64,000 bases of DNA from the NCBI RefSeq assembly GCF_003323745.1, contig NZ_QOIL01000005.1, forward strand, positions 248,001-312,000, given 5' to 3'. Both the position numbers and the translations under genes were made by a program. The notes below the pieces were generated by a model that saw nothing but the letters and a program-made list of their open reading frames with translations, was not told where the DNA came from and did not search any database. Below are positions 1-14,358 of this stretch, piece after piece. Origin of the DNA: Sphaerisporangium album. Lineage in GTDB: Bacteria; Actinomycetota; Actinomycetes; Streptosporangiales; Streptosporangiaceae. How positions within the stretch are numbered: position 1 is the first letter of the stretch; each line of letters begins with the position of its first letter.

Positions 1-2142
1 GGAGGCGTCCAGGAACTCCCTGTGCCGCCTCTCCAGGGCGGGGTACCGGCCCGGATCCGTGAGCCACCGTTGCTCGGCCGACCTGATCGTCTGCAGTTGC
101 CGTCCCTGGTAGAGGAATGACGGGTCGGGGCCGGGCCTGCCGCTCGCCCACTGCGCGGCTACATCGGCGAGACGCCCGTACAGCTTCCAATCCTCGATGT
201 CCTCTTTGAGCCAGTCCTTCAGGCGGGGCCAGGCCTTCAGCAGCACTTGGTGAGCGGGCTCCGCCCCGCCGTTTCCGATCACGACCAGCCGCTTGTCGGC
301 GAACTTCTCGAGGATGGGCCGCGACTCCACGGGCAGGTCCTTCAAGGCGACCCTGCGGCACGCCGGACGCCCGTCCCGGCCCACGAACATCAGCCGGCGC
401 AGCGCGTCCTGGGCGACGGGCCGTTCCTCGGGGGTCAGCTTCGCGTAGACCTCCTCGGCGCTCTGCTCGACGGCTCTGCGCACGCCACCCGACAACTCGT
501 AGGCGCGGTCGGTGAGACGGTCGCCCTCACGGTTCTCCCAGGTGAGCAGCATCGCCTGGGCCACGAGGGGAAGGGTTCCGGTCTCGAAGTCCGCCAGCTC
601 CGGTGAACGCAGGTCCAGAAGGATCCTCTGCACGAGCTTTTCCTCGATGCGCAGGCCCGCGGCCTCCGCCTGGTCGACGATGGCCCGCCGCAGATCCGGC
701 TCCTCCATCGGGCCCAGCACGAACTGGTTGTCCTGCTGCGCCTGCCGGAGCACGGGGTGGCGCGCGCAGTTGTCGATCTGATCACCGCGTACCGCGATCA
801 CCACCAGGGCCGGGACTCCGGCGTCCGACAGGGGGACGGCGGCGGCGTGCAGGGCGCCGACGAACGCGCGCGTCTTCTCCTCGCCGGGCCCGTTCGAGCC
901 GAACAGCTGCTCGAACTGGTCGACGACCAGGACGAGCCGCCTGTCGTCGCCCGCGACGCGGTCCGCCCGGCTGCGCCGGCCTTCGGCGAGCACCGCCTCC
1001 CGGACGAGGAACCCGGCACTCTCCGGCTCGGCGGTCAGCTGCTCGCGTAACGCCCGCTGGTTGCGCTTCTCCGCCAGTGCCGCCAAATGCAGGGCGAGCC
1101 CGGGCAAGGGCGAGCCGTATTCCATGGGGGTCATCACGATCCGGGGCCAGTACGCCGCCTCCGCGGGCAGCGGTCCGGTCGCCTGCCCTGGCCGCCTCCC
1201 CGCCGTCGCCAGCGCGGGCAACAGCCCGGCCCGCAGCAGCGAGGATTTCCCGACTCCGGACGCGCCGGTCACCATCACGATGTGCGGACCGCCACGTTCG
1301 ATGGTCCTGGCCACGATCCTGAGGAGCTCCTCTGTGGCCCCGGCTCGGCCGTGGAACAGCGCGGCGTCGCCCTGCTGGAACGCCGAGATCCCTCGGTACG
1401 GACGGTCCCCGCTCCACTGGGGGAACGGCGAACTCGGTCGTTCGCCCAGCGGCGGCCGTCCCCGGGCCGTGATCTCCCTCTGGAAGAGGTCCGTCTGGAG
1501 CGTCTGCCGGTGCATCAGGTCGGCCATCTGCTGGTGCTGCGCGCTGTGCAGGTCGGCACTGCTCCGCAGGGATTCCAGGGCGGTGGGGACGTCGCGGAGC
1601 AGGAACCGGAACTCCGCGAACTCCTCGCCGAGTGAGGCCAGGCCCGTCATGACCTGCCGCCGCGCTTCTTCCTGATCGCCCAGCGCCTCGCGGAGGAGGT
1701 CGCCGAGGTCTCCCATCTCGCGCAGGACCGGGGCGATGTCGGCCCGCAACGCCGCGGCCCGGTCGCCGTCCCCGGCCAGCACCTCCTCGATCCGCCGTTG
1801 GATCGCCTCCTCGGTCTCCTCGCCGGAGGCGCCGGGGCGGAGGCGCTGGACGGCCGATTTGAGTACATCGGTGAGGACGTTGCCGCCGACGCCGGCGAGC
1901 ACGTCGAACAACTCTCCGTCGCCCAGCAGGTTGCCGAACGCCCCGGCCGCCAGGACCGCGATGAGCGTGCCCGGTGTCGCGCGGCGTACCCGGGTCCCGG
2001 ACGCACGTGCCCAGCGGCGGACCCTGTCGCGCGCCCCGGCCCGCATGAGCCGTTTCCGCTCGTCCGGGCCGCCGCTCTCCCGGTCGCCGGCCGTGTGCCC
2101 GGACGCCTGCCCGTCCGGCTCGCACCCGGCTTCCTCGCTCAC
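1..2142 (-). CDS. STAND-family NTPase (nSTAND1-like), 3' partial
   Basis: Only the first 714 codons are visible; the C-terminus lies beyond the left edge. The chosen GTG start (2142) is 5 bp after the stop of the upstream lipoprotein gene. The first 60 or so residues are charged, followed by a Gly/Ala-rich hydrophobic stretch (about residues 50-90), a helical region, and then the NTPase core. The core opens with PYRGISAFQQGDAALFHGR, has a Walker A GASGVGKSS at about residue 293, and a Walker B-like LVLVVDQFEQLFG at about 405. The conserved RGDQ and FLYQGRQL segments further on are typical of the conflict/regulatory STAND ATPases of actinobacteria. Such proteins usually carry a C-terminal repeat sensor, which cannot be seen here. 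Codon 365 is TTA (1048-1050). The role as a signalling switch is inferred from the family; its ligand is unknown. Confidence 0.85.
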   Translation of the reverse strand, partial: MSEEAGCEPDGQASGHTAGDRESGGPDERKRLMRAGARDRVRRWARASGTRVRRATPGTLIAVLAAGAFGNLLGDGELFDVLAGVGGNVLTDVLKSAVQRLRPGASGEETEEAIQRRIEEVLAGDGDRAAALRADIAPVLREMGDLGDLLREALGDQEEARRQVMTGLASLGEEFAEFRFLLRDVPTALESLRSSADLHSAQHQQMADLMHRQTLQTDLFQREITARGRPPLGERPSSPFPQWSGDRPYRGISAFQQGDAALFHGRAGATEELLRIVARTIERGGPHIVMVTGASGVGKSSLLRAGLLPALATAGRRPGQATGPLPAEAAYWPRIVMTPMEYGSPLPGLALHLAALAEKRNQRALREQLTAEPESAGFLVREAVLAEGRRSRADRVAGDDRRLVLVVDQFEQLFGSNGPGEEKTRAFVGALHAAAVPLSDAGVPALVVIAVRGDQIDNCARHPVLRQAQQDNQFVLGPMEEPDLRRAIVDQAEAAGLRIEEKLVQRILLDLRSPELADFETGTLPLVAQAMLLTWENREGDRLTDRAYELSGGVRRAVEQSAEEVYAKLTPEERPVAQDALRRLMFVGRDGRPACRRVALKDLPVESRPILEKFADKRLVVIGNGGAEPAHQVLLKAWPRLKDWLKEDIEDWKLYGRLADVAAQWASGRPGPDPSFLYQGRQLQTIRSAEQRWLTDPGRYPALERRHREFLDAS

Positions 2143-2146
2143 CTGA

Positions 2147-2734
2147 TCAGCTCAGCGGCTCGTCCGGGCGCGCCGCCGTATGCGGGCCGGGGGTGAAGCC
2201 GGGCGGAACGGTCGCCGGCAACCGCGCGTAGCCCTGCTCCACCCACGGGCACTCGACGGCGGAGCTGAACTGGTTCTCGTCCAGGCACAACACCGTCCCT
2301 GTCGTCACGGTGACCGTGCAGGTCGCCGTCCGGGTCGCCTCGGACCACGATCCGTTGCGGCAGAGGCTGAGCCTGACGGATTCGTTCTCCCCGACCAGGA
2401 CGGGATGCAGCTTGCGGACCTTGGCGGTGAGGTGGACGACCATGCCGCGCGGAACGACGAACCTGCAGGACACGGTGGTCTGCGGCGGGGCCTTGCCGCG
2501 TTCCCGGACATCGGGGCAGAAGGTCTGGCCCGGGATGTCGGAGCCAATTCCGGAGCTCCACGCGGTCGGCATGAGCACCACCAGGGGCACGTCCCGGGAG
2601 GCCGTGGCCGTAGATGTGGACGCAGACGTGGAGGGCGGCAGGGTGGGATCGTCGCGGGCCTCGTTCGCCCCGCAGGCGGCGACGGCGAGCACGCACCCCG
2701 CGGCGGCGACGCGTCTCGCCAGGCGGCCGATCAC
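2147..2734 (-). CDS. Cys-rich lipoprotein of unknown function
   Basis: I do not recognise a named family. The GTG start at 2734 overlaps the stop of the upstream gene (GTGA), which implies translational coupling; in-frame starts further upstream would lie inside that gene. The N-terminus is a lipoprotein signal (arginines, then a hydrophobic stretch, lipobox VAAC), so the mature 180-residue protein should be anchored outside the membrane. After a Ser/Thr-rich linker the body has Cys residues in the order FC...SCRFVV..G....ATCTV...VLC...EC. The same order occurs twice in the neighbouring 263-residue protein, so the two look like one-domain and two-domain versions of the same module. The gene sits between that protein and the STAND NTPase in a tight operon, which suggests a shared extracellular sensing or binding role (inference). 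Confidence 0.75.
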   Translation of the reverse strand: MIGRLARRVAAAGCVLAVAACGANEARDDPTLPPSTSASTSTATASRDVPLVVLMPTAWSSGIGSDIPGQTFCPDVRERGKAPPQTTVSCRFVVPRGMVVHLTAKVRKLHPVLVGENESVRLSLCRNGSWSEATRTATCTVTVTTGTVLCLDENQFSSAVECPWVEQGYARLPATVPPGFTPGPHTAARPDEPLS

Positions 2735-3522
2735 GGGGTTCCCGCCCTGCGGTAGGGGAGGCATTCGCGCGCCAGTTTCTCCTCCACCGGGTCGCCGGAG
2801 GACACGCAGACGGTGGTGGCGGCCGGCGCGCCGAAGACGACGCACGTGATCGCGTCCGCGTGCCCCATGCCGCTGTTACAGCCCTCATAGGTCACGTAGT
2901 GGAAATCCCAGGCGCGGCCGGCCTGTGGATAGGGGTCGGCGGCGGCCTTCTCGAATTGGGCGCGCAGATAATAGATCTTGCCGGGTTTGATCGCGATCTC
3001 GCACCTCTTTCCCAGGGCACCGCCGTTCGCGCAGGGCTCGTCGAAGTTTCCGGACAGTTCGATCTTCCATTTTGTCCTGAAAACGACGGAGAGCTTGCCC
3101 GGCGCCTCGGCGACCGGTGTGCCGGGTCTGGTTCCGCACGCGTTCCGTGCCACGTCGGCGGGGCCGGTGGTCGTCACGCAGATCGTCGTGTCGCGATCCG
3201 GGCGAACCGTGCAGGTGGCCGCTCCCGGCCCCTCGCCGCACCCCCAGTAGGCGAGTCGCACGCCCTCCGGCAGCGCGGTCTGAGGCGTCGCGCCGATGGA
3301 CCTCGTCGTGTCGCCTTTGTCGACGCGCAGAATGGTGCGGCACACCCGCGTGCCGCATGATCCCGACGGCTCGCCGGGCAATGTAAGGGCCACCACCTGC
3401 GTGTCGGCCACGAGATTCAGCCGGACGGATTCAGAGGGCCTCAGCAGGAAATACGCCGCTCCGGCCGCCAAGATCAACATAGCGAGCGCGGCGCCCGTCA
3501 CCCTGATGGCAAGACGCTTCAT
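2731..3522 (-). CDS. Membrane-anchored Cys-rich protein with two repeated domains
   Basis: The 263-residue product begins with a short basic segment and one hydrophobic helix (residues about 9-27, ending FLLRPSES). No lipobox or clear signal-peptidase site follows, so it is probably a signal anchor with the rest outside. The exterior contains two copies of a Cys-patterned module: copy 1 has SCGTRVCRTILRVDKG then AATCTVRPDRDTTICV and NAC; copy 2 has KRCEIAIKPG then AITCVVFGAPAATTVCV and EC. The downstream lipoprotein has a third copy. Conserved spacing suggests disulfide-bonded beta-rich domains. The gene heads a three-gene operon with the lipoprotein and a STAND NTPase. I know no family name; function unknown. 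Confidence 0.75.
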   Translation of the reverse strand: MKRLAIRVTGAALAMLILAAGAAYFLLRPSESVRLNLVADTQVVALTLPGEPSGSCGTRVCRTILRVDKGDTTRSIGATPQTALPEGVRLAYWGCGEGPGAATCTVRPDRDTTICVTTTGPADVARNACGTRPGTPVAEAPGKLSVVFRTKWKIELSGNFDEPCANGGALGKRCEIAIKPGKIYYLRAQFEKAAADPYPQAGRAWDFHYVTYEGCNSGMGHADAITCVVFGAPAATTVCVSSGDPVEEKLARECLPYRRAGTP

Positions 3523-3930: not shown

Positions 3931-4905
3931 GTGGGTGTTCGAGTGATCTTCATAGGTGGGCTGGGGCGCAGTGGCACCACGCTGCTGGAGCGGCTGCTGG
4001 GCGAGGTGCCGGGGGTGGCGCCGCTCGGGGAGGTGGTCCATCTCTGGGAACGCGGTGTCATCGGCAAGGAGCCGTGCGGCTGCGGCGAGCCTTTCACCAC
4101 GTGTCCCTTCTGGCGCAGGGTCGGCATCCGCGCGTTCGGCGGCTGGTCGACGGGCCTGGCCGATCGCATTCTCACGCTGAGGCGGCGCGTCGACCGCACC
4201 AGGCACATCCCCGCCCTCGCGGCCCGCCGGTGCCGGGTCGGGCTCAGCGGTTACACGCGGGCGTACTCGCGGGTGTACGAGGCGGCGGCGCAGGTCGCGG
4301 GCGGTCGTGTGGTCGTCGACTCCAGCAAGCACGCCTCCCTCGCGTTCTGCCTGCGTACGTCCCCGGTGGTCGATATGAGCGTGGTCCACGTGGTGCGTGA
4401 CCCGCGCGCGGTGGCGTACTCCTGGCGCAAGCAGATCACCCGGCCCGAGGACGGCACGCCCATGACGCGCTGGCCGTCGGCGTGGACGGCCGTCCACTGG
4501 CTCGTGCAGAACCTCGCGTTCGAGCTGCTGGCCAGGCGCGGCGGCACCGTCATCCGCGTCCGGTACGAGGACCTGCTGGCCGACCCGCCCGCCGTGATGC
4601 AGGCCTTGCTCACCCGGCTCGGGCTCGGCGGCGTGGCGGTGACCTTCCTGCGGCAGGGGGTGGCCGAGCTGTCGGTCGCCCACACGTGCGCGGGCAACCC
4701 CATGCGCTTCGCGGCCGGGCCGCTGGATCTGTCCAGGGACGACAACTGGTGCGACCGCCAGCCCCGCCTGCACCGCTGGCTCGTGACCGCGCTGACCTGG
4801 CCGTTGATGCTCCAGTACGGCTACCGCCCGCGCGACCGCCGCACGCCCGAGGGCGCCGTCGCTCCGTGGCTCACGGCGGGGGTCGCCGCCCAGGAGTGCC
4901 GATGA
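3931..4905 (+). CDS. Sulfotransferase (PAPS-dependent), cluster copy 1
   Basis: The 324-residue protein has the two PAPS-binding signatures of the sulfotransferase superfamily: a P-loop-like GGLGRSGTT near residue 9 (5'-phosphosulfate binding) and HVVRDPRAVAYSW near residue 153 (3'-phosphate binding). It would transfer sulfate from PAPS to a sugar hydroxyl, probably on the glycan made by the neighbouring genes; the acceptor is inferred from context only. Start: GTG at 3931 follows a G-rich stretch that can serve as ribosome binding site; an in-frame GTG at 3901 would add ten residues but has no visible Shine-Dalgarno sequence. Its stop overlaps the ATG of the GT2 gene (ATGA), so the two are coupled. 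Two more sulfotransferases lie within 6 kb. Confidence 0.88.
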   Translation: MGVRVIFIGGLGRSGTTLLERLLGEVPGVAPLGEVVHLWERGVIGKEPCGCGEPFTTCPFWRRVGIRAFGGWSTGLADRILTLRRRVDRTRHIPALAARRCRVGLSGYTRAYSRVYEAAAQVAGGRVVVDSSKHASLAFCLRTSPVVDMSVVHVVRDPRAVAYSWRKQITRPEDGTPMTRWPSAWTAVHWLVQNLAFELLARRGGTVIRVRYEDLLADPPAVMQALLTRLGLGGVAVTFLRQGVAELSVAHTCAGNPMRFAAGPLDLSRDDNWCDRQPRLHRWLVTALTWPLMLQYGYRPRDRRTPEGAVAPWLTAGVAAQECR

Positions 4906-5948
4906 ACCCGGCCGAGTTCGCGGTGCCGATGTCCTTGGACTACCGCGGGGCGCCGATGTCGGGGGACCACTGCCGGACGCCAATGTCCTCCGACTACTGC
5001 GGGGCGCCGATGCCCTGGGATGAGGGCGGGCCGTCGGCGACCCCGGTCGTCGGGGTGGTCGTTCCGACGCGGGGAGATCGTCCCCAGCAGCTTCGGGCCG
5101 CGCTGCACGCCGCGCTCGCGCAGGAGTGCCCGGGAGGTGTGGACGCCGTCGTGGTCGTCGACCGCGGGGACGTCGCGGCGGTGACCGCGCACGTGGCCGA
5201 GGTCGCCGCGCGGTGGCCCGGCCGGGTGCGCGTCCTGGCGAACCGGCTGACCCCCGGGCTGCCCGGCGCGCGCAACACCGGCATCGCCGCCCTCGGCACG
5301 CCGATGGTCGCCTTCTGCGACGACGATGACGTGTGGCTGCCCGGCAAGCTGAGCGCCCAGCTCGACGCCCTCGCGGCCGACCCGGACGCCGAGTTCGCCG
5401 CCTGCGCCATCGAGGTCGAGTACGGCGCCCATCGCGTCACGCGCCTCGCGGGCACCGGGCGCGTCACCGCCGCGCATCTCACCCGGTCCCGCATGATGAT
5501 GGTCCACTCCTCGACGTTCCTGTTCAGGCGCGGCTCCATCTGGCCGGACGAGAGCGCGCCCGGCGGGCAGAACGAGGACTGGGATCTCGCGCTGCGCGCC
5601 GCCGCGCGCCATCCGATCGTCCATGTCGACCGGCCGCTCGTCCGCGTCCGGTGGGGCGGCTCCGCGTACGTCAGCCGCTGGGCCGACCGCATCGCCGGGC
5701 TCGAATGGATGCTCGCCCGGCACCGCGGCCTCGCCGCCGACCGGCGCGGCGCCGCGCGGATCTACGGCCAGCTCGCCTTCTGCAACGCGGCACTGGGGCG
5801 TCGCCGCGAGGCCGGTCGGTGGGCCCTGCGCGCGTTCGCCGCCCGCTGGGGCGAGCCGCGCGTGCCGATCGCGCTGGCGGTGGCGCTCGGTCTCGTCCCG
5901 GCGCGTTCCGTGCTGAGCGCGCTGCACACCCGGGGGCACGGAATCTGA
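4902..5948 (+). CDS. Family 2 glycosyltransferase with repeat-bearing N-terminus
   Basis: The 348-residue protein has a GT-A fold. The donor-binding strand is VVGVVVPTRGDRPQQL, followed by LPGARNTGIAAL and a metal-binding CDDDDVWLPGKL (DxD-type) motif. The catalytic-base region is NEDWDLALRA. It should add a nucleotide-sugar-derived residue to a lipid-linked glycan at the cytoplasmic face. The first 45 residues are not part of the fold: they consist of four imperfect 9-residue repeats (PMSLDYRGA, PMSGDHCRT, PMSSDYCGA, PMPWDEGGP). The ATG at 4902 overlaps the stop of the sulfotransferase, but a start after the repeats cannot be excluded. It ends in a TGATG overlap with the next glycosyltransferase. 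Confidence 0.88.
   Translation: MNPAEFAVPMSLDYRGAPMSGDHCRTPMSSDYCGAPMPWDEGGPSATPVVGVVVPTRGDRPQQLRAALHAALAQECPGGVDAVVVVDRGDVAAVTAHVAEVAARWPGRVRVLANRLTPGLPGARNTGIAALGTPMVAFCDDDDVWLPGKLSAQLDALAADPDAEFAACAIEVEYGAHRVTRLAGTGRVTAAHLTRSRMMMVHSSTFLFRRGSIWPDESAPGGQNEDWDLALRAAARHPIVHVDRPLVRVRWGGSAYVSRWADRIAGLEWMLARHRGLAADRRGAARIYGQLAFCNAALGRRREAGRWALRAFAARWGEPRVPIALAVALGLVPARSVLSALHTRGHGI
4925..5032 (+). repeat. Four in-frame 27-bp degenerate tandem repeats
   Basis: Units begin at 4925, 4952, 4979 and 5006, each starting GCCRATG and encoding nine residues (PM-[SP]-x-D-x-x-G/T-A). They lie in the 5' end of the GT2 gene and keep frame. Confidence 0.85.
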
Positions 5949-6760
5949 TGACTTCTCATGCTTTGATCGGCAGGTCCCGCGTCGTGGTGGCGGGCCTCGC
6001 AATGGACGCGCTCACCGAGGACGAGGTGGTGCGCCACGTCGTCGCGGCGGTGCGGCGGGGGGAGGGCGGCCATGTCGTCACCCCCAACGTCGACATCTGC
6101 CGCGCCTGCGCCCGGGACCCGGAGGTACGGGCCATCGTGGCGGGGGCCGACCTCGCCGTCCCCGACGGCATGCCGCTGGTATGGGCGTCGAGGCTGCTGG
6201 GGACGCCCGTTCCCGCGCGCATCACCGGCGCCGACCTGATCTGGTCGCTGTCGGAGGCCGCCGCGGCCAACGGCCTGTCGATCTACCTGCTGGGCGGGCC
6301 GCCCGGAATCCCGTGCAAGGCCGCCGAGGCGCTGCGCGCCCGCTTCCCGGGGCTGCGCGTCGCGGGCGGCGCCGCCCCGCCGTACGGCTTCGAGAAGTCG
6401 GCGGAGGGGCTCGCGGCGGTGCGGCAGGCGCTCGTCCACGCCGACCCGGACGTGGTGTTCGTGGGGCTCGGCTTCCCCAAGCAGGACCGGCTGATCGGGG
6501 TGCTGCGCGCCGAGCTGCCGGGGGCCTGGTTCGTCGGCTGTGGTGGTGCCATCTCGTTCGCGGCGGGTGTGGTGCGGCGGGCGCCTCGGTGGATGCAGCG
6601 GGCGGGGCTGGAGTGGCTGTTCCGCCTGTGCGCCGAGCCTGGCCGCCTCGCACGCCGGTACCTCGTGGACGATCTTCCGTTCGCGTTGGGCCTGCTCGCG
6701 ATGTGCCTGGTGAAGCGACTGCTCAGACGGTGGCGTAGCTCCCGGCGCGGTGTCCACTGA
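5948..6760 (+). CDS. WecG/TagA/CpsF-family glycosyltransferase
   Basis: This 270-residue protein matches the family that includes TagA (N-acetylmannosaminyl transfer to lipid-linked GlcNAc) and WecG. Seen are VVTPNVDICRACA, the signature ADLAVPDGMPLVWASRLLG with the conserved Asp, ITGADLIW, a Rossmann-like IYLLGGPPGI, and VFVGLGFPKQDRLI. The C-terminal tail (WMQRAGLEWLFRL, then RYLVDD and a hydrophobic helix) matches the membrane-targeting end of TagA-like enzymes. It probably adds the second sugar to a polyprenyl-linked acceptor in this locus. The start overlaps the GT2 stop (TGATG). It is the last gene of the plus-strand trio; the following genes are on the other strand, converging here. 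Confidence 0.9.
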   Translation: MTSHALIGRSRVVVAGLAMDALTEDEVVRHVVAAVRRGEGGHVVTPNVDICRACARDPEVRAIVAGADLAVPDGMPLVWASRLLGTPVPARITGADLIWSLSEAAAANGLSIYLLGGPPGIPCKAAEALRARFPGLRVAGGAAPPYGFEKSAEGLAAVRQALVHADPDVVFVGLGFPKQDRLIGVLRAELPGAWFVGCGGAISFAAGVVRRAPRWMQRAGLEWLFRLCAEPGRLARRYLVDDLPFALGLLAMCLVKRLLRRWRSSRRGVH

Positions 6761-6789
6761 CGTTCGCCGGGGGGCTCCTTTCCCGCTCG

Positions 6790-7911
6790 CTAGTGGATGG
6801 ATTCGCGCCACGTCCGGGTCAGTTCGCCGATTCGGGCGGTCTCTTCGGGGGTGAGCCGGTCGCGGTGGCCGGCGAGGGCCCGGCTCGGGTCCATGGGCCG
6901 GTACGCGGTGCGGGACAGGCCGTTCCAGGCGAAACCCCGCGCCGGGGCCGCTTTCGTGGCGGTGTGCGCGGTCGGTGCCTGTCGCAGGCTTCCGGGGACG
7001 GTACCCGGAGTGTTCGGATCGTTTGAGGTGTCCGATTGGTCTGAGGTGTCCCTGTTCGCGGTTTTCGGGCGGCCGGTGTCGGGTGCGGAGGCCCGTCTGA
7101 TCGCTCTTTCCGCCCGAGCCGACCAGGTGAGGCCGCACCACGTGTACAGGTCGCGGTAGTGGCCCACCGGGTCGGTCACGAGGTCCTCGTACGGGACGAC
7201 GCGGACGCCGGGGTGGCGTCCGGACAGGTTCTCGGCGGCGGCCCGGGCGACGCTCCACAGCGCGCAGGTCGTCGCGAGGTGGTCCTCCGAACCTGCCAGA
7301 GGACGCAGCGCCCGCGCGTACGGGTGGTCGCGGACCAGCAGCGGTTGCCCGAGCAGCTCGCCCGGGTCCACACGCCAGCCGAGACGCCGCCAGCTCGCCA
7401 CCAGGGACACCGGGTCGCGGACCATCAGGACCACGCGGCACCCGAGCCGTTCGGCGAACCATCCCGCCGAGAACAGGGCGAACGGGTCGTCCAGCAGGGC
7501 CCGGCGGCCGCGGATCCGGCCGAGGGTGAAGGCGGAGGCGTTCTTCGCCAGGCGCGCGAGGTCGCGGGGACGGCGGTTGCGGCGCAGTTCGGCGGCGTAG
7601 CGGTAGCGCAGGGCCACGGTGTCGGCGAACGCGCGCAGCCACGGGTCCTCGTCGTCGGGGCAGATGTACTGGAACCTGTGGCGCACGGTCGCGTTCAGCA
7701 CGCCGGGAGAGCGGCCCGGGGGGCGCTGGGGGTTGAGCGGTTCGTTGACGTACACCGCCTCGCCGCCCGCCGTGAGCATCTTCCCGGCCCAGCTCGTCCC
7801 GCTCCTCGGCAGCCCGGTCACCAGAATGGGCGCCCGGCCCACAGGGGCCGACTGCCGCCGACGCGTCCGGTCGGCGGTGGTGCTCGTCCGGTACGCGGGG
7901 TCGTCGCTCAT
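6790..7911 (-). CDS. Sulfotransferase, cluster copy 2
   Basis: A 373-residue protein with PILVTGLPRSGTSWAGK (5'-PSB loop, residues about 28-44) and VVLMVRDPVSLVASWRRL (3'-PB motif, near 160), followed by VRVVPYEDLVTDP, all typical of PAPS-dependent sulfotransferases. The ATG at 7911 overlaps the stop of the flippase gene (ATGA). The carboxy-terminal third is interrupted by about 50 low-complexity residues between RRASAPDTGRP and RGFAWNGLSRTAYRPMD; the insert includes DTSDQSDTSNDPN, encoded by short repeats. Last gene of the minus-strand polysaccharide operon (14358 down to 6790), and the target hydroxyl is unknown. Confidence 0.88.
   Translation of the reverse strand: MSDDPAYRTSTTADRTRRRQSAPVGRAPILVTGLPRSGTSWAGKMLTAGGEAVYVNEPLNPQRPPGRSPGVLNATVRHRFQYICPDDEDPWLRAFADTVALRYRYAAELRRNRRPRDLARLAKNASAFTLGRIRGRRALLDDPFALFSAGWFAERLGCRVVLMVRDPVSLVASWRRLGWRVDPGELLGQPLLVRDHPYARALRPLAGSEDHLATTCALWSVARAAAENLSGRHPGVRVVPYEDLVTDPVGHYRDLYTWCGLTWSARAERAIRRASAPDTGRPKTANRDTSDQSDTSNDPNTPGTVPGSLRQAPTAHTATKAAPARGFAWNGLSRTAYRPMDPSRALAGHRDRLTPEETARIGELTRTWRESIH
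7011..7064 (-). repeat. Three in-frame 18-bp degenerate repeats
   Basis: Units start at 7011, 7029 and 7047; the first two are clearly similar (TGTYCGRWYSGTYTGAGG pattern), the third weak. They encode part of a low-complexity insert in sulfotransferase copy 2. Confidence 0.6.
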
Positions 7912-9596
7912 GAAGTCGTCTCGGCTTCTCGTGGGACAGGTGTCGTGGCGGAGGTGGGGGGAGTCGAGGTGCTGTGCACGAGCAGAAGGTGCCGTGCGTG
8001 CGTGGTGTTCTGGGGACGAGGTGGCGGCCCACCGCGCCACAGGCGGAGAGACGGCATGGTGTGGGGGCCGAAGGGGCGCAGGCCGTAGGCCCGGGAGATC
8101 TGGAACAAGGGAAGGAGGTTCTTGGCGAGGACCCCGGCCGACCAGCCGAGTGCGGCGCCGAGCGCTCCGTGCGAGGGGACGAGGACGATGTCCAGGGCGA
8201 TGGTCACCATGATCGCGGTGAGCATGTTGGCCATGCTGGAGGCGGTGTGCCCGGCGGCGGTCAGGACGACGTCCACCATGCCGCAGGCCGTCGCCACCAT
8301 CATCGTCACGCCGAGGACGGCCGCCACCATGGCCCCGCCGTCGTAGCCGTCCCCGAACGCCCGCAGCAGCCACGGCGCGAGCAGGGCGTATCCCAGCCAG
8401 ATCGGCCAGGTGAGTACGACCAGCCAGATCGTGGCCGTCTGGTACAGCCTGCGCGCCACGGGCAGGTCGCCGTCCGCCATGGCGAGGATCAGGCGTGGCT
8501 GGGCGGCCTGGGCCAGGCCCTGGTTGACGAGCTGGCCGACCACCTTGAAGCGGGTGGCGGCGGTGTAGACGGCGGCCTCCGCCGGGCCGGCGAGGAGGGC
8601 CACGAGGACGACGTCGAGCCGCTGGAACACGGCCTGCACGGCCCCGCCGAACGCGCGGGGACCTGTGTACCGCCAGAACTCGGCGGCGGCGCCGCGGGCC
8701 CGGGTGGCGTCGTCCTGGGAGGGCGGTGCGGTGCCGAGGTGGAAGGTGCCGCGGTCCTTGGCGGGAGGGTCGGTGCCATGGAGGGGCGTGACGACGTCAT
8801 GGAGGCCGGTTGTGCCGGCTTGGAGATCCGGCGTCGATCGCCTTCGGTGCTTGCCCCTGGTTCCTGAGGCGTGCCGTGTCGGGCGGCGTAACCAGAGGGC
8901 GGCGAGGAGCAGGACCGGGAGCGCCGGGGCGGACCAGGCGGCCGGGATCGCCCAGGCCCGCCCGGCCGCCGCGCCGGTCATGACCAAGGTCCCGACGAGG
9001 AGGAGCTGTGCCGCGGGGTGCAGCATTCCGGTGAGCAGCGTCGTCGGCCGCATCGTCCCGAGGCCGCGCGTCGCCGCGACCAGCAGGTCGGCGCAGACGA
9101 TGACCGGGAGCGCGAGGGCGAGCGTGCGCAGGATCGTCGCGGTCGTCTCCGGGGAGGGGCCGGTGAGCGCGACGGCTCCAAATGTTCCGGATGGCCTGGG
9201 AGGTTCCGTCGGTCCCGATATCAGGGCGGCGAGGGGGTCCGCGCCGAGATACACGAGAACGGACGCGACGAGGGACAGGACCACCACCGGGGTCAGGGCC
9301 GGCCGAAGGAATCGGGAAATTTCGCGGTACTGCTCCGCGCGTGTCCGGGCGATGAAGTAGATCAACCCGTTCCCGGCGTCCAGGCGCAGGATCCCGGCGA
9401 CCATCAGGCACAGCGACGTCGTCGTGAACACCACGCCCGCCGACGCGGCGTCCAGCCCCCGGGCGAGCACGACCATGAGCAGCATCTGCGCCCCGGCACT
9501 GACCACCGCTCCGGCCAGCCCCGCGAGACCTCCCTTCGCCAGGGAAGCCACACCGCCGTCCCTTGATGGCGCACGGCCGGGGTCTAGCGGCGCCAT
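7908..9596 (-). CDS. Oligosaccharide flippase (Wzx/MOP superfamily)
   Basis: The 562-residue protein is strongly hydrophobic, with roughly 12-14 membrane segments starting at VASLAKGGLAGLAGAVVSAGAQ, the usual Wzx/polysaccharide-transporter opening. It should move lipid-linked repeat units from the cytoplasmic to the outer leaflet for polymerisation. The start ATG (9596) lies 13 bp inside the end of the upstream sulfotransferase gene, and its stop overlaps the next sulfotransferase start. Between the two membrane halves there is a hydrophilic insert of about 60 residues containing three 14-residue repeats, in the region where Wzx proteins normally have a short loop. A hydrophilic tail of about 45 residues ends the protein. 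Codon 236 is TTA (8889-8891). Confidence 0.88.
   Translation of the reverse strand: MAPLDPGRAPSRDGGVASLAKGGLAGLAGAVVSAGAQMLLMVVLARGLDAASAGVVFTTTSLCLMVAGILRLDAGNGLIYFIARTRAEQYREISRFLRPALTPVVVLSLVASVLVYLGADPLAALISGPTEPPRPSGTFGAVALTGPSPETTATILRTLALALPVIVCADLLVAATRGLGTMRPTTLLTGMLHPAAQLLLVGTLVMTGAAAGRAWAIPAAWSAPALPVLLLAALWLRRPTRHASGTRGKHRRRSTPDLQAGTTGLHDVVTPLHGTDPPAKDRGTFHLGTAPPSQDDATRARGAAAEFWRYTGPRAFGGAVQAVFQRLDVVLVALLAGPAEAAVYTAATRFKVVGQLVNQGLAQAAQPRLILAMADGDLPVARRLYQTATIWLVVLTWPIWLGYALLAPWLLRAFGDGYDGGAMVAAVLGVTMMVATACGMVDVVLTAAGHTASSMANMLTAIMVTIALDIVLVPSHGALGAALGWSAGVLAKNLLPLFQISRAYGLRPFGPHTMPSLRLWRGGPPPRPQNTTHARHLLLVHSTSTPPTSATTPVPREAETTS
8712..8837 (-). repeat. Three in-frame 42-bp degenerate tandem repeats
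   Basis: Units start at 8712, 8754 and 8796, each 42 bp. They encode STPDLQAGTTGLHD, VVTPLHGTDPPAKD and RGTFHLGTAPPSQD in the central loop of the flippase. Confidence 0.8.
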
Positions 9597-10441
9597 GACG
9601 GGGTGTCTCCGAGCCAGTCGCGGAGTTTGTGGTCCCACGGGAGGAAGTGGTCGGACAGGGTTCTTCTTAGCGAGTGGGGCATCGTGGTGGGGCGTGGGCG
9701 GGCGTTGTGGCGTTCGAAGACGGGGTCGCCCAGGCGCGGCAGTCCCAGGAACTCCAGGACCTGGTCGTACACGGGCTCGGGCGTGGTGAAGAAGCGTCCG
9801 CTGTCGATCACGAGGATGCGGCGGCGGCCCATCACGGACTCCAGCCGCGCGAGCTGTTCGGCGTACTGGCCTCGGGTGACGTACGCGTGGTGGCGGTGGG
9901 CGGTGCTCCGCGCGTAGGGCTCCGCGCACAGCCGCTCGATCTCCCCTTCCAGCCGCGCCGGCTCCAACTCGACGGCGCGCTCGAACGACGGCTCCGTCTC
10001 GAACCCGCGCGCGAGCTCGTGGGCGTGGGCGGAGTACGCCCGCTCGACCGGGTCGCGGACGAGCACGATCATCTTCGCCCCGGGCAGGTCGCGCGCCATG
10101 CGGTACGGGGACAGCGGGTGGAACAGGTAGTAGGGAGACGACTCGAAGGCGAGCGGCCGCGTGCCGTACCTGCGCTCCAGCCGGTAGGCGGTGGTTTTGA
10201 GGGGGAAATGCGCGCGGTACCAGGAAAGCCCCTTCTCGTATGCGATGTCGAAGTAGTGGACGCCCTTGCGCAGCACCGGTTTCAGGACGAGCGGGTGCTG
10301 GGCCAGTGCTCGGTACAGGGAGGTGGTGCCGCAGCGCTGCGCCCCGACGATCAGGAAACACGGCAGGAGCCGTCCGCCCACGGTGAGCCGGCCGGCGGTG
10401 TGGGAGACGGCGTGCGCGGAGCGTTTGACCGCGGGGTTCAT
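9584..10441 (-). CDS. Sulfotransferase domain protein, cluster copy 3
   Basis: A 285-residue protein close to the heparan-sulfate-type sulfotransferase branch: FLIVGAQRCGTTSLYRAL (PAPS 5'-loop, residues 30-47), KGVHYFD, MIVLVRDPVERAYSAHAHE (3'-phosphate motif, near 122), and a late YAEQLARLESVMGRRRILVI. It differs in subtype from copies 1 and 2, so it may modify another position or sugar. It is a compact protein without the low-complexity insert seen in several neighbours. The ATG at 10441 overlaps the stop of the kinase-like gene (ATGA), and its 3' end overlaps the flippase start. Confidence 0.9.
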   Translation of the reverse strand: MNPAVKRSAHAVSHTAGRLTVGGRLLPCFLIVGAQRCGTTSLYRALAQHPLVLKPVLRKGVHYFDIAYEKGLSWYRAHFPLKTTAYRLERRYGTRPLAFESSPYYLFHPLSPYRMARDLPGAKMIVLVRDPVERAYSAHAHELARGFETEPSFERAVELEPARLEGEIERLCAEPYARSTAHRHHAYVTRGQYAEQLARLESVMGRRRILVIDSGRFFTTPEPVYDQVLEFLGLPRLGDPVFERHNARPRPTTMPHSLRRTLSDHFLPWDHKLRDWLGDTPSWRR

Positions 10442-11598
10442 GTCAGGACCTCCAGGGGGTCGACGAGGGGGGACAGCCACCGTGAGGGCGGGCCGAGGGG
10501 GTGGTGGCCGTCCCGTTCGTGACGGTCGGCCAGGGTGATCAGGTAGTGGACGGCCGTCTCGCGGGCCTGGGCCGCCGAGAGGCCGTACGGCGCGAGCGTG
10601 GGCAGGGCGTGGGCGAGGCATGCGGCGGCGGCGATATCGGGGGGCATGCGCCGCAACGCACGCTGGAAGAAGTGGTGAAGCGCGTCGAACCCCAGCGGCA
10701 CCCCGCCGCCGAACCGCTCCCAGTCCCACACGAGCAGCCGCCCGTCCGGGGAAGGCGCGATGTTCCACGGTGAGAAGTCCCCGTGCCAGCAGTGGCCGCC
10801 AAGCGGTCCGGGCCGTGTCGTCGCGGTGTCGAGCGGTTCTGGCCCGGCGGTCGCCGTGCCGGGGGGTCCGGGGGAGGGGGGCGTGGTGCCGGAAGGGCCG
10901 GACCGGGCGGTGGCGGCGGGGGGCTCTGGGCGGACGGTGATCGTGTCGAGCGGGTCTGAGCAGGCGGCCGGTGTGCCGAGAGAGGGGTGGAGGCCGAGGG
11001 TGGCGATCTCTACGACGGCCTGGGTGAACAGGGTGTGGGGGACGCGGCGGAGGCGCCGGATCGGGAGGGGGGAGAGGGCCAGGACCTCCAGGTCGTTCCA
11101 GGTGCCGTGGTGAAGGATCGTGGGGACGACCACCGTCTTCAACGGGGTGACCGCCAGCAGGGCGAGGGTCATGGCCTCGTGGCGGACGAGGGCGCGGGCG
11201 CGGTCGGTGTCCCCCATCTTGACGAAGGCGAGGCGCTCGCCCGTGGCCGCGCGGACCTCCAGGACGGGCTTGCGGTTCGCGCGCCGGGCCGGGCGTACGT
11301 GCAGGGTGATCCCCACGTGCTGCCCGAAGACCTCGCTCAGGTGGCCCTCGATCGTGCCGGAACCGCCGGGCAGGCGGCGGCGTCCGGGCAGCCACCGGGA
11401 CCGGGGGACGAGGCGCCGCGGCAGGAACCGGCTCGGCGTCAGCGCGTACGCGGTAGTGGGCTCACCGGTGGCGCGGAGGCGGTCCGAGGGGTCGGTGTCT
11501 TCGTACGGGCCAGGTGTCCGGGGGACGGCGTTCACGGGCGGGTAGAGCAGGGTGATCACCTCGTCGAGGTAGCTCAGACGGGCGCGGCGGTCCCTCAT
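10438..11598 (-). CDS. Aminoglycoside-phosphotransferase-fold kinase
   Basis: The 386-residue product has the APH/choline-kinase fold: a nucleotide-binding N-lobe with LAFVKMGDTDRARALVRHEA (Lys and helix-C Glu), a catalytic loop CWHGDFSPWNI and a metal-binding LVWDWERFGGG. It should phosphorylate a small molecule or sugar; the substrate is unknown. Its position between the polymerase-like gene and a sulfotransferase suggests a role in precursor phosphorylation or in decorating the glycan (inference). Between the lobes, directly before the catalytic loop, is an insert of about 60 Pro/Thr/Gly-rich residues made of 10-residue repeats. ATGA overlaps join it to both neighbours. Confidence 0.8.
   Translation of the reverse strand: MRDRRARLSYLDEVITLLYPPVNAVPRTPGPYEDTDPSDRLRATGEPTTAYALTPSRFLPRRLVPRSRWLPGRRRLPGGSGTIEGHLSEVFGQHVGITLHVRPARRANRKPVLEVRAATGERLAFVKMGDTDRARALVRHEAMTLALLAVTPLKTVVVPTILHHGTWNDLEVLALSPLPIRRLRRVPHTLFTQAVVEIATLGLHPSLGTPAACSDPLDTITVRPEPPAATARSGPSGTTPPSPGPPGTATAGPEPLDTATTRPGPLGGHCWHGDFSPWNIAPSPDGRLLVWDWERFGGGVPLGFDALHHFFQRALRRMPPDIAAAACLAHALPTLAPYGLSAAQARETAVHYLITLADRHERDGHHPLGPPSRWLSPLVDPLEVLT
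10802..10978 (-). repeat. Six in-frame ~30-bp degenerate tandem repeats
   Basis: Units start at 10802, 10832, 10862, 10892, 10922 (27 bp) and 10949. They encode the low-complexity insert (TATAGPEPLD, TATTRPGPLG and similar) immediately before the catalytic loop of the APH-fold kinase. Confidence 0.8.
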
Positions 11599-13091
11599 CG
11601 GTTCGCCGCCGGGGCCCGCATGGGGATGGTCGGCCGTGCGGTCATCGGCACCGTCGCCGGCGTGCCGTCCCCGCGGACGGGTCTGCCGTCCCGGGGGATT
11701 GGTGTCCCGTTCCCAGGGGCTGGTGTGCCGTCCCAGGGGGCCGGTCTGCCGGGGTCATGGGGGATCGCCGGTGGCGGCGGCCGGTGGCCGTTGCGCCAGA
11801 GGAGGGCGTAGGAGATCAGGTAGAGGCCGAGGGCCGTGACCAGGCCGTCGTAGATGAACATGTAGAGCAGCACGAGGATCATGACCAGCGTCCCCGCCTG
11901 CCCGATCGGTGTGCGGTCGTGCCGGAAGCGGCGGATGGCGCCCGCGAAGAACCCGATGTACAGCGCCGCGCCCGTGAAGCCCTGCGTGATCAGCAGCAGC
12001 CACAGTTGCCCGTCGCTGCCGAGCGGCGGGTGCCCGCACTCGGCGCACCAGTCGGTCTTGCCGGTGGTGATGGTCTGGTAGCTGCCGAACGCGTTGCGCG
12101 TGTTGCCGTACCCGATGAACGGCGAGTGGGTGGCCGCCTCCAGCGTGGTGGTGACGGTGAACGCGCGGATGCGGTTGCTGTGCGGTTTGTCCAGGCGCTG
12201 GGCGACGATGTCGGTCAGCGGCCCGGCGGCCAGCACGAGCGCCCCGCAGGCGAGGCCCGCGCCGACGAGGAACCCCCGGCGCGGGCGCACGCGCACCAGC
12301 ACGTACGCCGCCGAGACGGCGAGCCCCGCCCACAGCCCCCGGTTGAGCGAGTACACGATCGGGATCGCCGACAGCGCGACGACCGCCACGCACACCGCCC
12401 GCCGCGCGGGCCCGCCCCACGTCCACCAGCCCACCACGAACCAGATCAGCAGCACCGACAGGTTGCCGCCCCAGGCGTTGGCCCACTCGAACGGGGCCTC
12501 GGGACGCGGCGCCGCGTGCCCGAGTACGTGCTGGATCTGCGCCGCCGTGGGGTGGATCAGATTGCGCACGTAGGAGTTGCCGCTGATCCAGGACGGCAGG
12601 ATCGACTCGACGGGCGAGGTGAACTCCAGGCGCGGCGCGAAGACGCCGAGCAGCCCGCCCGCCACGGTGGTGAGGAAGAGCACGCCGAGCATGCCCACCA
12701 GCGCCCGCTGGGGCAGCTCGCGCTCGGTGAGGTTGCCCAGGTAGAGCACCATGATCATCAGGGCGAGGTACAGCGCGAGCCGCATGGTGTACCCGAGGAC
12801 GCGGCCGGTGCCGAGCTCCCCGTACGTGCCGGGGGGCGTCTCGTCGAGCATCACGGCGCTCACCAGGTATCCGGCGATGAGCAGCATCCACAGCCCCATG
12901 CCCTTGGGGACGGTGATCGGACGGCGCCGCCAGAGGACGACGGCCATCGGGCAGGCGACGACGATGATCGACAGCCCGCCGAACCCGAGCGCCCACCAGA
13001 CGGGGTAGCCGACGAGGAACGCCGCGATGGGCCAGGCGGCGGGCGAGGGCATCCGGACGGGGCCCGTGCGCCGGGGGGGAGGCGGTGTCAC
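11595..13091 (-). CDS. O-antigen ligase/polymerase-like membrane protein
   Basis: A 498-residue multi-spanning protein with about 10-12 hydrophobic helices and one large external loop (from about residue 150 to 210, with ILPSWISGNSYVRNLIHP). The later YSLNRGLWAGLAVSAAYVL and PFIGYGNTRNAFG segments resemble the conserved Arg-containing regions of Wzy/WaaL proteins. It likely polymerises or ligates flipped repeat units on the outer face. The GTG start (13091) follows the Wzz-like stop by 7 bp. The C-terminal 60 residues are hydrophilic and formed by five 7-residue repeats (such as GTPAPGN, GTPIPRD, GRPVRGD), then a short tail. The fold assignment is family-level; donor and acceptor are unknown. 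Confidence 0.83.
   Translation of the reverse strand: MTPPPPRRTGPVRMPSPAAWPIAAFLVGYPVWWALGFGGLSIIVVACPMAVVLWRRRPITVPKGMGLWMLLIAGYLVSAVMLDETPPGTYGELGTGRVLGYTMRLALYLALMIMVLYLGNLTERELPQRALVGMLGVLFLTTVAGGLLGVFAPRLEFTSPVESILPSWISGNSYVRNLIHPTAAQIQHVLGHAAPRPEAPFEWANAWGGNLSVLLIWFVVGWWTWGGPARRAVCVAVVALSAIPIVYSLNRGLWAGLAVSAAYVLVRVRPRRGFLVGAGLACGALVLAAGPLTDIVAQRLDKPHSNRIRAFTVTTTLEAATHSPFIGYGNTRNAFGSYQTITTGKTDWCAECGHPPLGSDGQLWLLLITQGFTGAALYIGFFAGAIRRFRHDRTPIGQAGTLVMILVLLYMFIYDGLVTALGLYLISYALLWRNGHRPPPPAIPHDPGRPAPWDGTPAPGNGTPIPRDGRPVRGDGTPATVPMTARPTIPMRAPAANR
11659..11763 (-). repeat. Five in-frame 21-bp degenerate tandem repeats
   Basis: Units start at 11659, 11680, 11701, 11722 and 11743, each beginning GGYGTSCCG or GGTCTGCCG. 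They encode seven-residue Gly-Thr/Arg-Pro repeats in the C-terminal tail of the polymerase-like protein. Confidence 0.85.
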
Positions 13092-13098
13092 GCCGGGC

Positions 13099-14358
13099 TC
13101 ACGAGGCCCGGGCGGGGGAGTCGGGCGGGTTGCGGCGGCCGAGCCCGGGACGGGTGTCGCCGGGCGCGGCGGTGGCCGACAGCAGGATCACCCCGAGCGG
13201 CGAGATCTCGGTGCGCCGTAACTGGCGGACGGCCTGCGCGAGCTGCTTGGAGCGGGCCGCGCGGCTCTCGACGACGAGCAGGGCGGCGTCCGCGTGGGCG
13301 GCGTGGTCGGTGCGCACCCAGATGGGGGCGAGGCCGGTGAGCGCGAGGCGCAGGTCGTCGGCGATGGGCTCGGGGTCCACGCCGGGGGTCACGCCGCGTA
13401 CGAGCAGCTCGCCGCCGTCGCGCAGGTGCCGCGCGACGGCCACGGCCAGCTCGCGCAGCTCACGGGCGTTCCCGGCCTTGGCGAGGACGGGCAGGCCGGT
13501 GAGCCGTTCGATGTCGGCGGCCGTCCTCAGCCGGGTGTCGAGGCGGTCGCGCAGCATGGCGGCCCCGGTGCCGGCGAGCAGGCCGAGGAACAGCCCGCTG
13601 CCGAGGTAGAGCGGCGGGCGCGGCTGGGTGGGGGAGGCGGGCGGGCGGGCGTCGCTGATGACGTTGCCGGGGGTGACGGCGACGGTCTTGAGCGCGTCGT
13701 ACTTGAGCGTGAGGGCGTAGACCTGCCTGCTCAGGACGTTCTGCCGCTGGGCGGCGATGGTGCGCGCGGCCGAGCCGGGCGTCGTGCGGGGCAGCCCGGC
13801 GACGGTGGCGGCGAGCGCGGAGTCGACCTGGCGGAGCTTGCCGGCCAGGGCCTTGAGCTGGGCGTCGATGGCGTGCTTGGCCGTCGACTCCCGGTTGGCG
13901 AGGTAGCCCTTGGCGAACGCCTGCGCCCCGGCGGCGGCGTTGACCGGGTCCCCGGCCGTGTACGAGACCTCCAGCACCGCCGAGTTCGGCGGGACGGTGA
14001 CGGTGACGCGCTCGCGGAGCGTCTCGGGGTCGCCGGCCTTGAGCGTGCGCGCGGCCCGCGCGGCGACGACGGCGGACCGGGCGATCTGCGCCTCGGTGTC
14101 GAGGTTGAGCGGCTCGCGCTGGCGCTGGGTGGTCTGGTTGGTCTGGTCCTGCACGCCGGTCGGGGAGACGAGGATCTCGGCGGTGGCGGTGTAGGACGCG
14201 GGGGACAGCGCGAGCGCGAGGCCGCCGAGGCACAGGCCGGCGAGCAGGAACCCGGCGAGCGTGACGCGTCGCCGCAGCAGCATCGCCCGGAAGTCGGCGA
14301 ACTCGCGCCCGGTCGCCGGGCCGGGGACGCCATGGACTGAGGACGCCGGGTGACTCAT
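13099..14358 (-). CDS. Wzz-like chain-length determinant with a decayed kinase-like tail
   Basis: The 419-residue protein has a first membrane helix (VTLAGFLLAGLCLGGLALAL), an extracytoplasmic region starting SYTATAEILVSP (Wzz domain), a coiled-coil-rich middle, and a second helix (LYLGSGLFLGLLAGTGAAML). After it comes DRLDTRLRTAADIERLTGLPVLA, the usual junction to a BY-kinase domain. That cytoplasmic domain is short and lacks a Walker A loop, though ADAALLVVESRAARSKQL keeps the strand pattern of the Walker B/C region, so it is probably catalytically dead. It should set polymer length. The start is taken at ATG 14358; an ATG at 14409 would add 17 residues. Codon 380 is TTA (13219-13221). It is the first gene of the minus-strand operon. 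Confidence 0.85.
   Translation of the reverse strand: MSHPASSVHGVPGPATGREFADFRAMLLRRRVTLAGFLLAGLCLGGLALALSPASYTATAEILVSPTGVQDQTNQTTQRQREPLNLDTEAQIARSAVVAARAARTLKAGDPETLRERVTVTVPPNSAVLEVSYTAGDPVNAAAGAQAFAKGYLANRESTAKHAIDAQLKALAGKLRQVDSALAATVAGLPRTTPGSAARTIAAQRQNVLSRQVYALTLKYDALKTVAVTPGNVISDARPPASPTQPRPPLYLGSGLFLGLLAGTGAAMLRDRLDTRLRTAADIERLTGLPVLAKAGNARELRELAVAVARHLRDGGELLVRGVTPGVDPEPIADDLRLALTGLAPIWVRTDHAAHADAALLVVESRAARSKQLAQAVRQLRRTEISPLGVILLSATAAPGDTRPGLGRRNPPDSPARAS

What the first reader, a model, noticed from the sequence alone, without database searches (positions are those of the whole stretch)
1..3522. STAND NTPase coupled to two secreted proteins that share a new-looking Cys-rich domain
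Aligning by eye, the 263-residue protein holds two copies and the lipoprotein one copy of a module with the order C-x(n)-C-[RE]-x-x-[VI]...G...(A/T)-[TI]-C-[TV]-V...[VI]-C...[NE]-[AC]. The three genes overlap or abut (GTGA, 4 bp). STAND proteins are known as signal-driven switches, but I know of no described pairing with this exported module. It could be a transmembrane sensing or defence-type unit. The extracellular copies suggest that something outside is measured.
Basis: partly seen in the sequence, partly recalled or inferred. Interest (0 to 1): 0.75.

Follow-up and report, generated by a model that had tools for sequence, protein, structure and literature searches.

The report
Likely outward-facing NLR-like bacterial receptor
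Three adjacent genes in soil actinobacteria appear to build a receptor that links new cysteine-rich domains outside the cell to an NLR-like molecular switch inside it, suggesting that such switches can watch the outside of a bacterium as well as its interior.

Summary
An anchored 263-aa protein (modules A and B), a lipoprotein (module C) and a 1590-aa nSTAND1 NTPase form one tight unit; the NTPase runs off the window. A and B are homologous (hhalign 98%); C is related to B more weakly (87%) and to A marginally. No Pfam, NCBIfam or PADLOC family covers either exported protein.

The pairing with STAND is strongly supported. The three-gene unit recurs in the same order in four other genomes. In 297 family genomes, the secreted protein and the STAND protein's own C-terminal domain occur in the same four. 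Ten further loci carry module A fused behind a membrane helix; nine retain a STAND-like ATPase on the other side, and one has lost it. Behind module A the tail varies: B, C, a propeller-like domain, or an unassigned domain.

In the STAND protein all six cysteines beyond the membrane helix are invariant in five orthologues, against one of three before it. This fits an outside WD40 propeller. Best reading: a split, outward-facing NLR-like receptor with a constant membrane-proximal module and exchangeable heads. Ligand and output are unknown. New variant of a known kind.

The parts
2731..3522 (-). 263-aa membrane-anchored exported protein, modules A + B
   Evidence: orthologues in L028, L029, L030 at 46-69% identity and in L039 at 60%
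3445..3501 (-). N-terminal hydrophobic anchor (aa 8-26)
   Evidence: Kyte-Doolittle 2.02; same place as the membrane helix of the fused relatives
3124..3426 (-). module A (aa 33-133), six cysteines
   Evidence: alignment A1, 15 of 15 rows
2734..3099 (-). module B (aa 142-263), six cysteines
   Evidence: alignment A2; hhalign A-B 98.2%
2147..2734 (-). 195-aa lipoprotein carrying module C
   Evidence: lipobox read by eye; hhalign B-C 86.7%
1..2142 (-). nSTAND1 NTPase gene (first 714 of 1590 aa in the window; continues to G000:C45:245370): N-terminal helical region, nSTAND1, TM aa 728-746, WD40 repeats, C-terminal domain
142..1401 (-). nSTAND1 NTPase domain, Walker A GASGVGKS
   Evidence: PF20703 313 bits against cut-off 27.1; 314.6 bits; motif
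1843..1980 (-). conserved hydrophobic N-terminal stretch (aa 55-100), possible output region
   Evidence: 30% of columns invariant in 5 orthologues against 13% over aa 1-247; function inferred

Best explanation
The three genes encode one trans-envelope receptor. The nSTAND1 switch lies in the cytoplasm. A single membrane helix puts its WD40 propeller and C-terminal domain outside. There they work with the membrane-anchored A-B protein and the module-C lipoprotein as co-receptors. A ligand outside changes this assembly, the STAND part exchanges nucleotide and oligomerises inside, and its N-terminal hydrophobic/helical region gives the output. Module A is the constant membrane-proximal part of a wider receptor family whose distal head is exchangeable (B, C, propeller-like, other). 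Shown by sequence: the parts, the co-inheritance, the fusions and the conserved cysteine pattern. Inferred: topology, complex formation, ligand sensing and output.
For: The same three-gene order with a 4-nt overlap and a 3-12-nt gap occurs in 5 of 5 operon loci. Within 297 family genomes, the strong operon-type hits of the 263-aa protein, the strong non-fused hits of module C and the strong hits of the STAND C-terminal domain fall in the same 4 genomes. Fusions put module A right behind a membrane helix that follows an ATPase; one fusion carries A plus the lipoprotein module (42% identity, E 4e-23). All 6 cysteines after the membrane helix are invariant in 5 of 5 STAND orthologues against 1 of 3 before it. 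Charges favour N-inside in 5 of 5 (+2 to +7 before, -1 to +1 after). dN/dS is 0.33, 0.26 and 0.52 against the closest relative.
Against: No ligand, effector or phenotype is known. The topology rests on hydropathy, charge and cysteines, not on experiment. One truncated locus (L044) keeps the exported modules without the ATPase. Module B also sits on a protein with no STAND gene recognised in the 20 kb seen (L061), so B is not exclusive to STAND. The fused ATPases match STAND families only weakly, mostly under Pfam cut-offs.
Confidence: 0.6

Rival explanations
1. The exported proteins are effectors or surface structures (for instance an adhesin or a secreted conflict protein), and the STAND protein only controls their deployment.
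For: Module B's nearest folds are Ig-like domains of bacterial adhesins and pilins and the VHL beta domain (5u6f, Z 7.2, rmsd 2.9, 93 aligned), a common arrangement at that Z.
Against: In 9 fusions the modules are tethered to the ATPase by a membrane helix, the geometry of a receptor rather than of a released product. Both proteins carry membrane anchors (read from sequence).
Confidence: 0.2
2. The STAND protein's WD40 part is cytoplasmic (the membrane helix is only a hydrophobic linker), and it senses inside like APAF-1; the secreted proteins report on something else in the same operon.
For: In APAF-1 the WD40 repeats sense inside the cell (PMC7159879, passages seen).
Against: Hydropathy of the helix is 2.49-2.91 in 5 of 5 orthologues with positive charges before it; all 6 distal cysteines are invariant; in the fused relatives the exported modules lie on the C side of the helix.
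Confidence: 0.17
3. The three genes are chance neighbours with unrelated roles.
For: Other nSTAND1-TM-WD40 genes in this genome have no obvious secreted partner (window 56191-60201; C34, L114).
Against: Same order in 5 genomes, the same 4 of 297 family genomes, and gene fusions. Two independent sets of 4 in 297 would coincide with probability about 3e-9, ignoring shared ancestry.
Confidence: 0.03

Closest known systems
nSTAND1 NTPases (PF20703; named in Kaur et al. 2021, PMC8195603, passages seen)
   Same: The NTPase domain is a clear member (313 bits, cut-off 27.1) with WD40 repeats behind it.
   Different: Two exported partner proteins, a membrane helix before the propeller, and a C-terminal domain found with those partners in the same 4 of 297 family genomes at strong E-values.
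EACC1 two-gene systems (Kaur et al. 2020, PMC7159879, passages seen)
   Same: Actinobacterial, membrane-linked, variable C-terminal parts that can include TM helices followed by an extracellular periplasmic-binding-protein domain.
   Different: No caspase domain found in either exported protein or in the first 714 aa of the STAND protein; no EACC1 partner recognised.
DGR-diversified STAND antigen sensors (PMC10907252, section 14 and passages seen)
   Same: STAND NTPases with variable sensor domains; in one target the NACHT and CLec domains are both predicted periplasmic.
   Different: No C-type lectin or FGE domain listed here (and, which shows 25 of 57 families for the whole protein); the sensor candidate is a new Cys6 module, with ATPase and exported module on opposite sides of a helix.
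STAND ATPase with TPR sensor PH0952 (PDB 6mfv)
   Same: Best PDB sequence match of the fused ATPases (E 1e-4, profile 151-282). That PH0952 is a STAND ATPase is recalled.
   Different: The fused relatives add a membrane helix and exported modules.

Membership tests
STAND NTPase, nSTAND1 | nSTAND1 profile above curated cut-off | tested here: met
   313.2 bits against 27.1
STAND NTPase, nSTAND1 | Walker A and Walker B motifs kept in orthologues | tested here: met
   Walker A in 5 of 5, my Walker B pattern in 4 of 5
STAND NTPase, nSTAND1 | ligand-driven nucleotide exchange and oligomerisation | not testable with these tools
   needs purified protein
STAND NTPase (fused relatives) | STAND or AAA_16 profile above cut-off | tested here: inconclusive
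   AAA_16 in 7 of 7 at E up to 0.01 and nSTAND5 in 5 of 7; scores seen are mostly under the cut-offs; AAA_22 passes its cut-off in L031 (29 against 27)
EACC1 system | caspase-like peptidase in the partner protein | tested here: not met
   none among the families listed for the two exported proteins and the first 714 aa of the STAND protein
DGR antigen sensor | C-type lectin/FGE sensor domain | tested here: inconclusive
   none, but one search prints only 25 of 57 families for the full STAND protein; no DGR search made
Ig-like/CnaB adhesin domain (fold of module B) | clear fold match | tested here: inconclusive
   Z 7.2, rmsd 2.9, 93 aligned to 5u6f; Z under 8 is common by the tool's own note
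Known anti-phage defence protein (PADLOC) | specific PADLOC model match | tested here: not met
   none for the two exported proteins; only a HEAT-ARM_XIII match over the TM/WD40 part and weak P-loop matches for the STAND protein

The most novel reading that the evidence does not exclude
A family of outward-facing bacterial NLR-like receptors: a cytoplasmic STAND switch linked through a single membrane helix to a constant six-cysteine stem (module A) with exchangeable extracellular heads. It exists both as one-piece receptors and, in the window's clade, as a split receptor in which the stem and heads are separate anchored proteins working with a WD40-bearing nSTAND1.
Probability: 0.45. Interest if true: 0.82.

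Novelty: new variant of a known kind. Interest (0 to 1): 0.64.

Why it matters
Characterised STAND/NLR switches are read mainly as detectors of events inside the cell (recalled; the passages of PMC7159879 seen describe APAF-1 in this way). A STAND switch wired through the membrane to swappable outside heads would be a bacterial counterpart of cell-surface pattern receptors. The natural one-piece fusions make it directly testable: the same output should be triggered through different heads. It also gives an unannotated six-cysteine domain (no Pfam, NCBIfam or PADLOC match for either exported protein) that marks such receptors.

Tried and rejected
Divergent InlB B-repeat (Flg_new_2) origin of the module: suggested by eye (recalled pattern), but no such Pfam match in 9 members of A2 or 6 of A3, and the fold look gave Ig-like adhesins and VHL instead. 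Not pursued.

Known family for the exported proteins: none in Pfam at a meaningful level, NCBIfam or PADLOC; PDB sequence search of A1, A2 and A3 gave only E 0.71 or worse.

Viral carriage: 16 pattern matches in viral contigs, none a relative. Plasmids: one relative of the 263-aa protein, on a Streptomyces plasmid; none for the lipoprotein. One phylum-wide sample of 95 genomes found only the window's genome.

Weak matches dropped before the counts: five rows at E 4.6e-4 to 0.0085 (G126, G028, G086, G007, G154), three with stops inside; a sixth weak row (G111:C1:6509819) is module B of the fused gene already counted. In one search G062 (E 9e-5, stop inside); four rows at E 0.001 to 0.006; two rows (G190, G266, stops inside). 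None was followed up. The weak call-25/27 row G105 was followed up and is L061.

vWA assignment of L061: read by eye; neither Pfam nor PDB sequence search supports it. The propeller-like tail of the Nocardiopsis/Streptomyces fusions has no Pfam match in the proteins scanned and only weak designed-propeller matches in PDB (E 0.006 and 0.061; that these are designed propellers is recalled).

Literature: searches (PMC open library only) listed no paper whose title or abstract start describes this pairing; I read passages of PMC8195603, PMC7159879 and PMC10907252 and one section of the last. No supplements were read and most subscription journals are not held.

Failed or empty steps: scripts (wrong file name; pattern missing in one row) stopped with errors; my own simple gene caller mis-set some starts (the L029, L039 and L040 lipoproteins, L032, L037), corrected by reading the frame. 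The lipoprotein went into with 8 extra N-terminal codons, and P0001 as stored carries one extra N-terminal residue before the GTG start and was used so.
Full report
WHAT IS THERE. On the minus strand lie three tightly packed genes: a 263-aa protein (2731-3522), a 195-aa lipoprotein (2147-2734, GTG start, 4-nt overlap) and, after a 4-nt gap, an nSTAND1 gene from 2142 to the window's edge. On the contig (G000:C45) the STAND protein is 1590 aa. It has an N-terminal region of about 247 aa, nSTAND1 (aa 248-667; 313 bits, cut-off 27.1), a strong membrane helix (aa 728-746; hydropathy 2.51), WD40 repeats and a C-terminal domain of about 128 aa.

THE MODULE. I cut the exported proteins into A (aa 33-133 of the 263-aa protein), B (aa 142-263) and C (the lipoprotein's folded part). 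Profile-profile comparison gives A-B 98.2% (E 5e-14), B-C 86.7% (4e-6) and A-C 20.2% (0.0011, 39 columns). Against 100 column shuffles and 100 cysteine-keeping shuffles per pair, the real scores 81.0, 39.6 and 25.6 exceeded all (best shuffles of either kind 20.0, 19.9 and 23.1). The A-C margin is small. The B profile finds the A copy of the window's own protein at E 0.002. The structure model of the 263-aa protein (pLDDT 71, pTM 0.52) shows two beta domains with similar strand order. B resembles Ig-like adhesin domains and the VHL beta domain (best Z 7.2, rmsd 2.9, 93 aligned), which by the tool's note may be only a common arrangement. The lipoprotein model is poor (pLDDT 46.6).

THE UNIT RECURS. 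In the genus, none of the 10 other genomes held has either exported protein at E 0.001. Among 297 family genomes, 11 places in 10 genomes match the 263-aa protein at E 3e-19 or better. A fifth is Streptomyces actinomycinicus (L039, G610). The three proteins are 43-73% identical to the window's in the first three relatives. The STAND C-terminal domain, searched alone in 297 family genomes, gives strong matches in exactly those four family genomes; so do the non-fused strong matches of module C (where a fifth strong match, G075, is a fusion). dN/dS against T. echinospora is 0.33, 0.26 and 0.52, which fits purifying selection on all three genes.

ROSETTA STONES. The other strong module-A loci are single proteins: N-terminal ATPase, membrane helix, module A, then a varying tail. 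Tails: module C in G075 (42% identity to the lipoprotein, E 4e-23); module B in G068, G111 and Actinocorallia sp. API 0066; a propeller-like domain in three Nocardiopsis and two Streptomyces (weak PDB support); and an unassigned tail on a mobilizable linear plasmid of Streptomyces europaeiscabiei. That is 10 fusions. Nine keep the ATPase; in S. wuyuanensis (L044) the ATPase half is missing and no P-loop was found in the 3 kb around it. So 14 of 15 distinct module-A loci have an ATPase in the same protein or operon. The fused ATPases are STAND-like but remote: AAA_16 in 7 of 7 scanned at E up to 0.01, nSTAND5 in 5 of 7 (7 of the 9 ATPases were given to that call), best PDB match the STAND sensor PH0952 (E 1e-4). 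A tree of module A separates operon and fused forms with 100/100 support. The window's 263-aa protein looks like the outside half of an A+B receptor, cut free of its ATPase and served by a different STAND protein.

TOPOLOGY. In five STAND orthologues, charges favour N-inside. All six cysteines after the helix are invariant and fall in three pairs, against one invariant of three before it. This fits disulfides in an outside propeller and C-terminal domain. A generic nSTAND1-TM-WD40 in the same window (56191-60201) has only one such pair and no adjacent secreted partner.

MECHANISM. Most likely the three proteins form a receptor: WD40 and modules A-C outside, nSTAND1 inside; an outside ligand triggers NTP-dependent assembly, and the hydrophobic N-terminal stretch (aa 55-100, 30% invariant against 13% for the whole N-terminal region) is my candidate output. 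The ligand and the output are not shown. Patchy presence (4 of 297 family genomes) and a plasmid copy of the fused form fit an accessory, conflict-type system, but envelope sensing is equally possible. By eye, no separate effector gene is conserved next to the five units.

EXTRA HINT. In several fused loci the receptor and its neighbour (a kinase or a protein of about 120-155 aa) both start with a GDVxGxVVxGDxN tag: 12 of 218 genes in 16 loci by pattern, plus the L032 receptor by reading its frame. This looks like homotypic coupling, but it is absent from the window's unit (0 of 52 window genes).

NOVELTY. nSTAND1 and its role in conflict systems are described (PMC8195603, PMC7159879; passages seen). 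Periplasmic placement of a NACHT-CLec target was predicted in one organism (PMC10907252, section 14). I found no described pairing of a STAND NTPase with this exported module in the searches. I rate it a new variant of a known kind, with a new domain.

Noticed in passing
window 56191-60201 (-): A second nSTAND1-TM-WD40 gene (1336 aa) without a secreted partner next to it; a third is at G000:C34 (L114), also without an obvious overlapping partner.
   Followed up: partly
L031, L033, L034, L035, L116 (fused gene and neighbour); L032, L045: Short GDVxGxVVxGDxN tag at the N-terminus of fused STAND receptors and of the adjacent kinase or small protein (12 of 218 genes): possible homotypic adaptor.
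   Followed up: partly
L061:10990-12174 (-): Module B at the end of an anchored protein that looks vWA-like by eye (no Pfam support), beside a second similar protein and a 136-aa protein.
   Followed up: partly
L116:4180-7131: Fused STAND-TM-module-A gene on a 250-kb linear mobilizable plasmid, a few hundred bases before two Tn3-family transposase genes.
   Followed up: partly
L044:8362-10251: Fused relative that has lost its ATPase half (homology starts at residue 415 of the L045 protein), perhaps a decaying copy.
   Followed up: partly
window 3943-14358: Next to the unit lies a run of genes that look by eye like polysaccharide synthesis genes (sulfotransferase-, glycosyltransferase- and flippase-like); not checked.
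   Followed up: no
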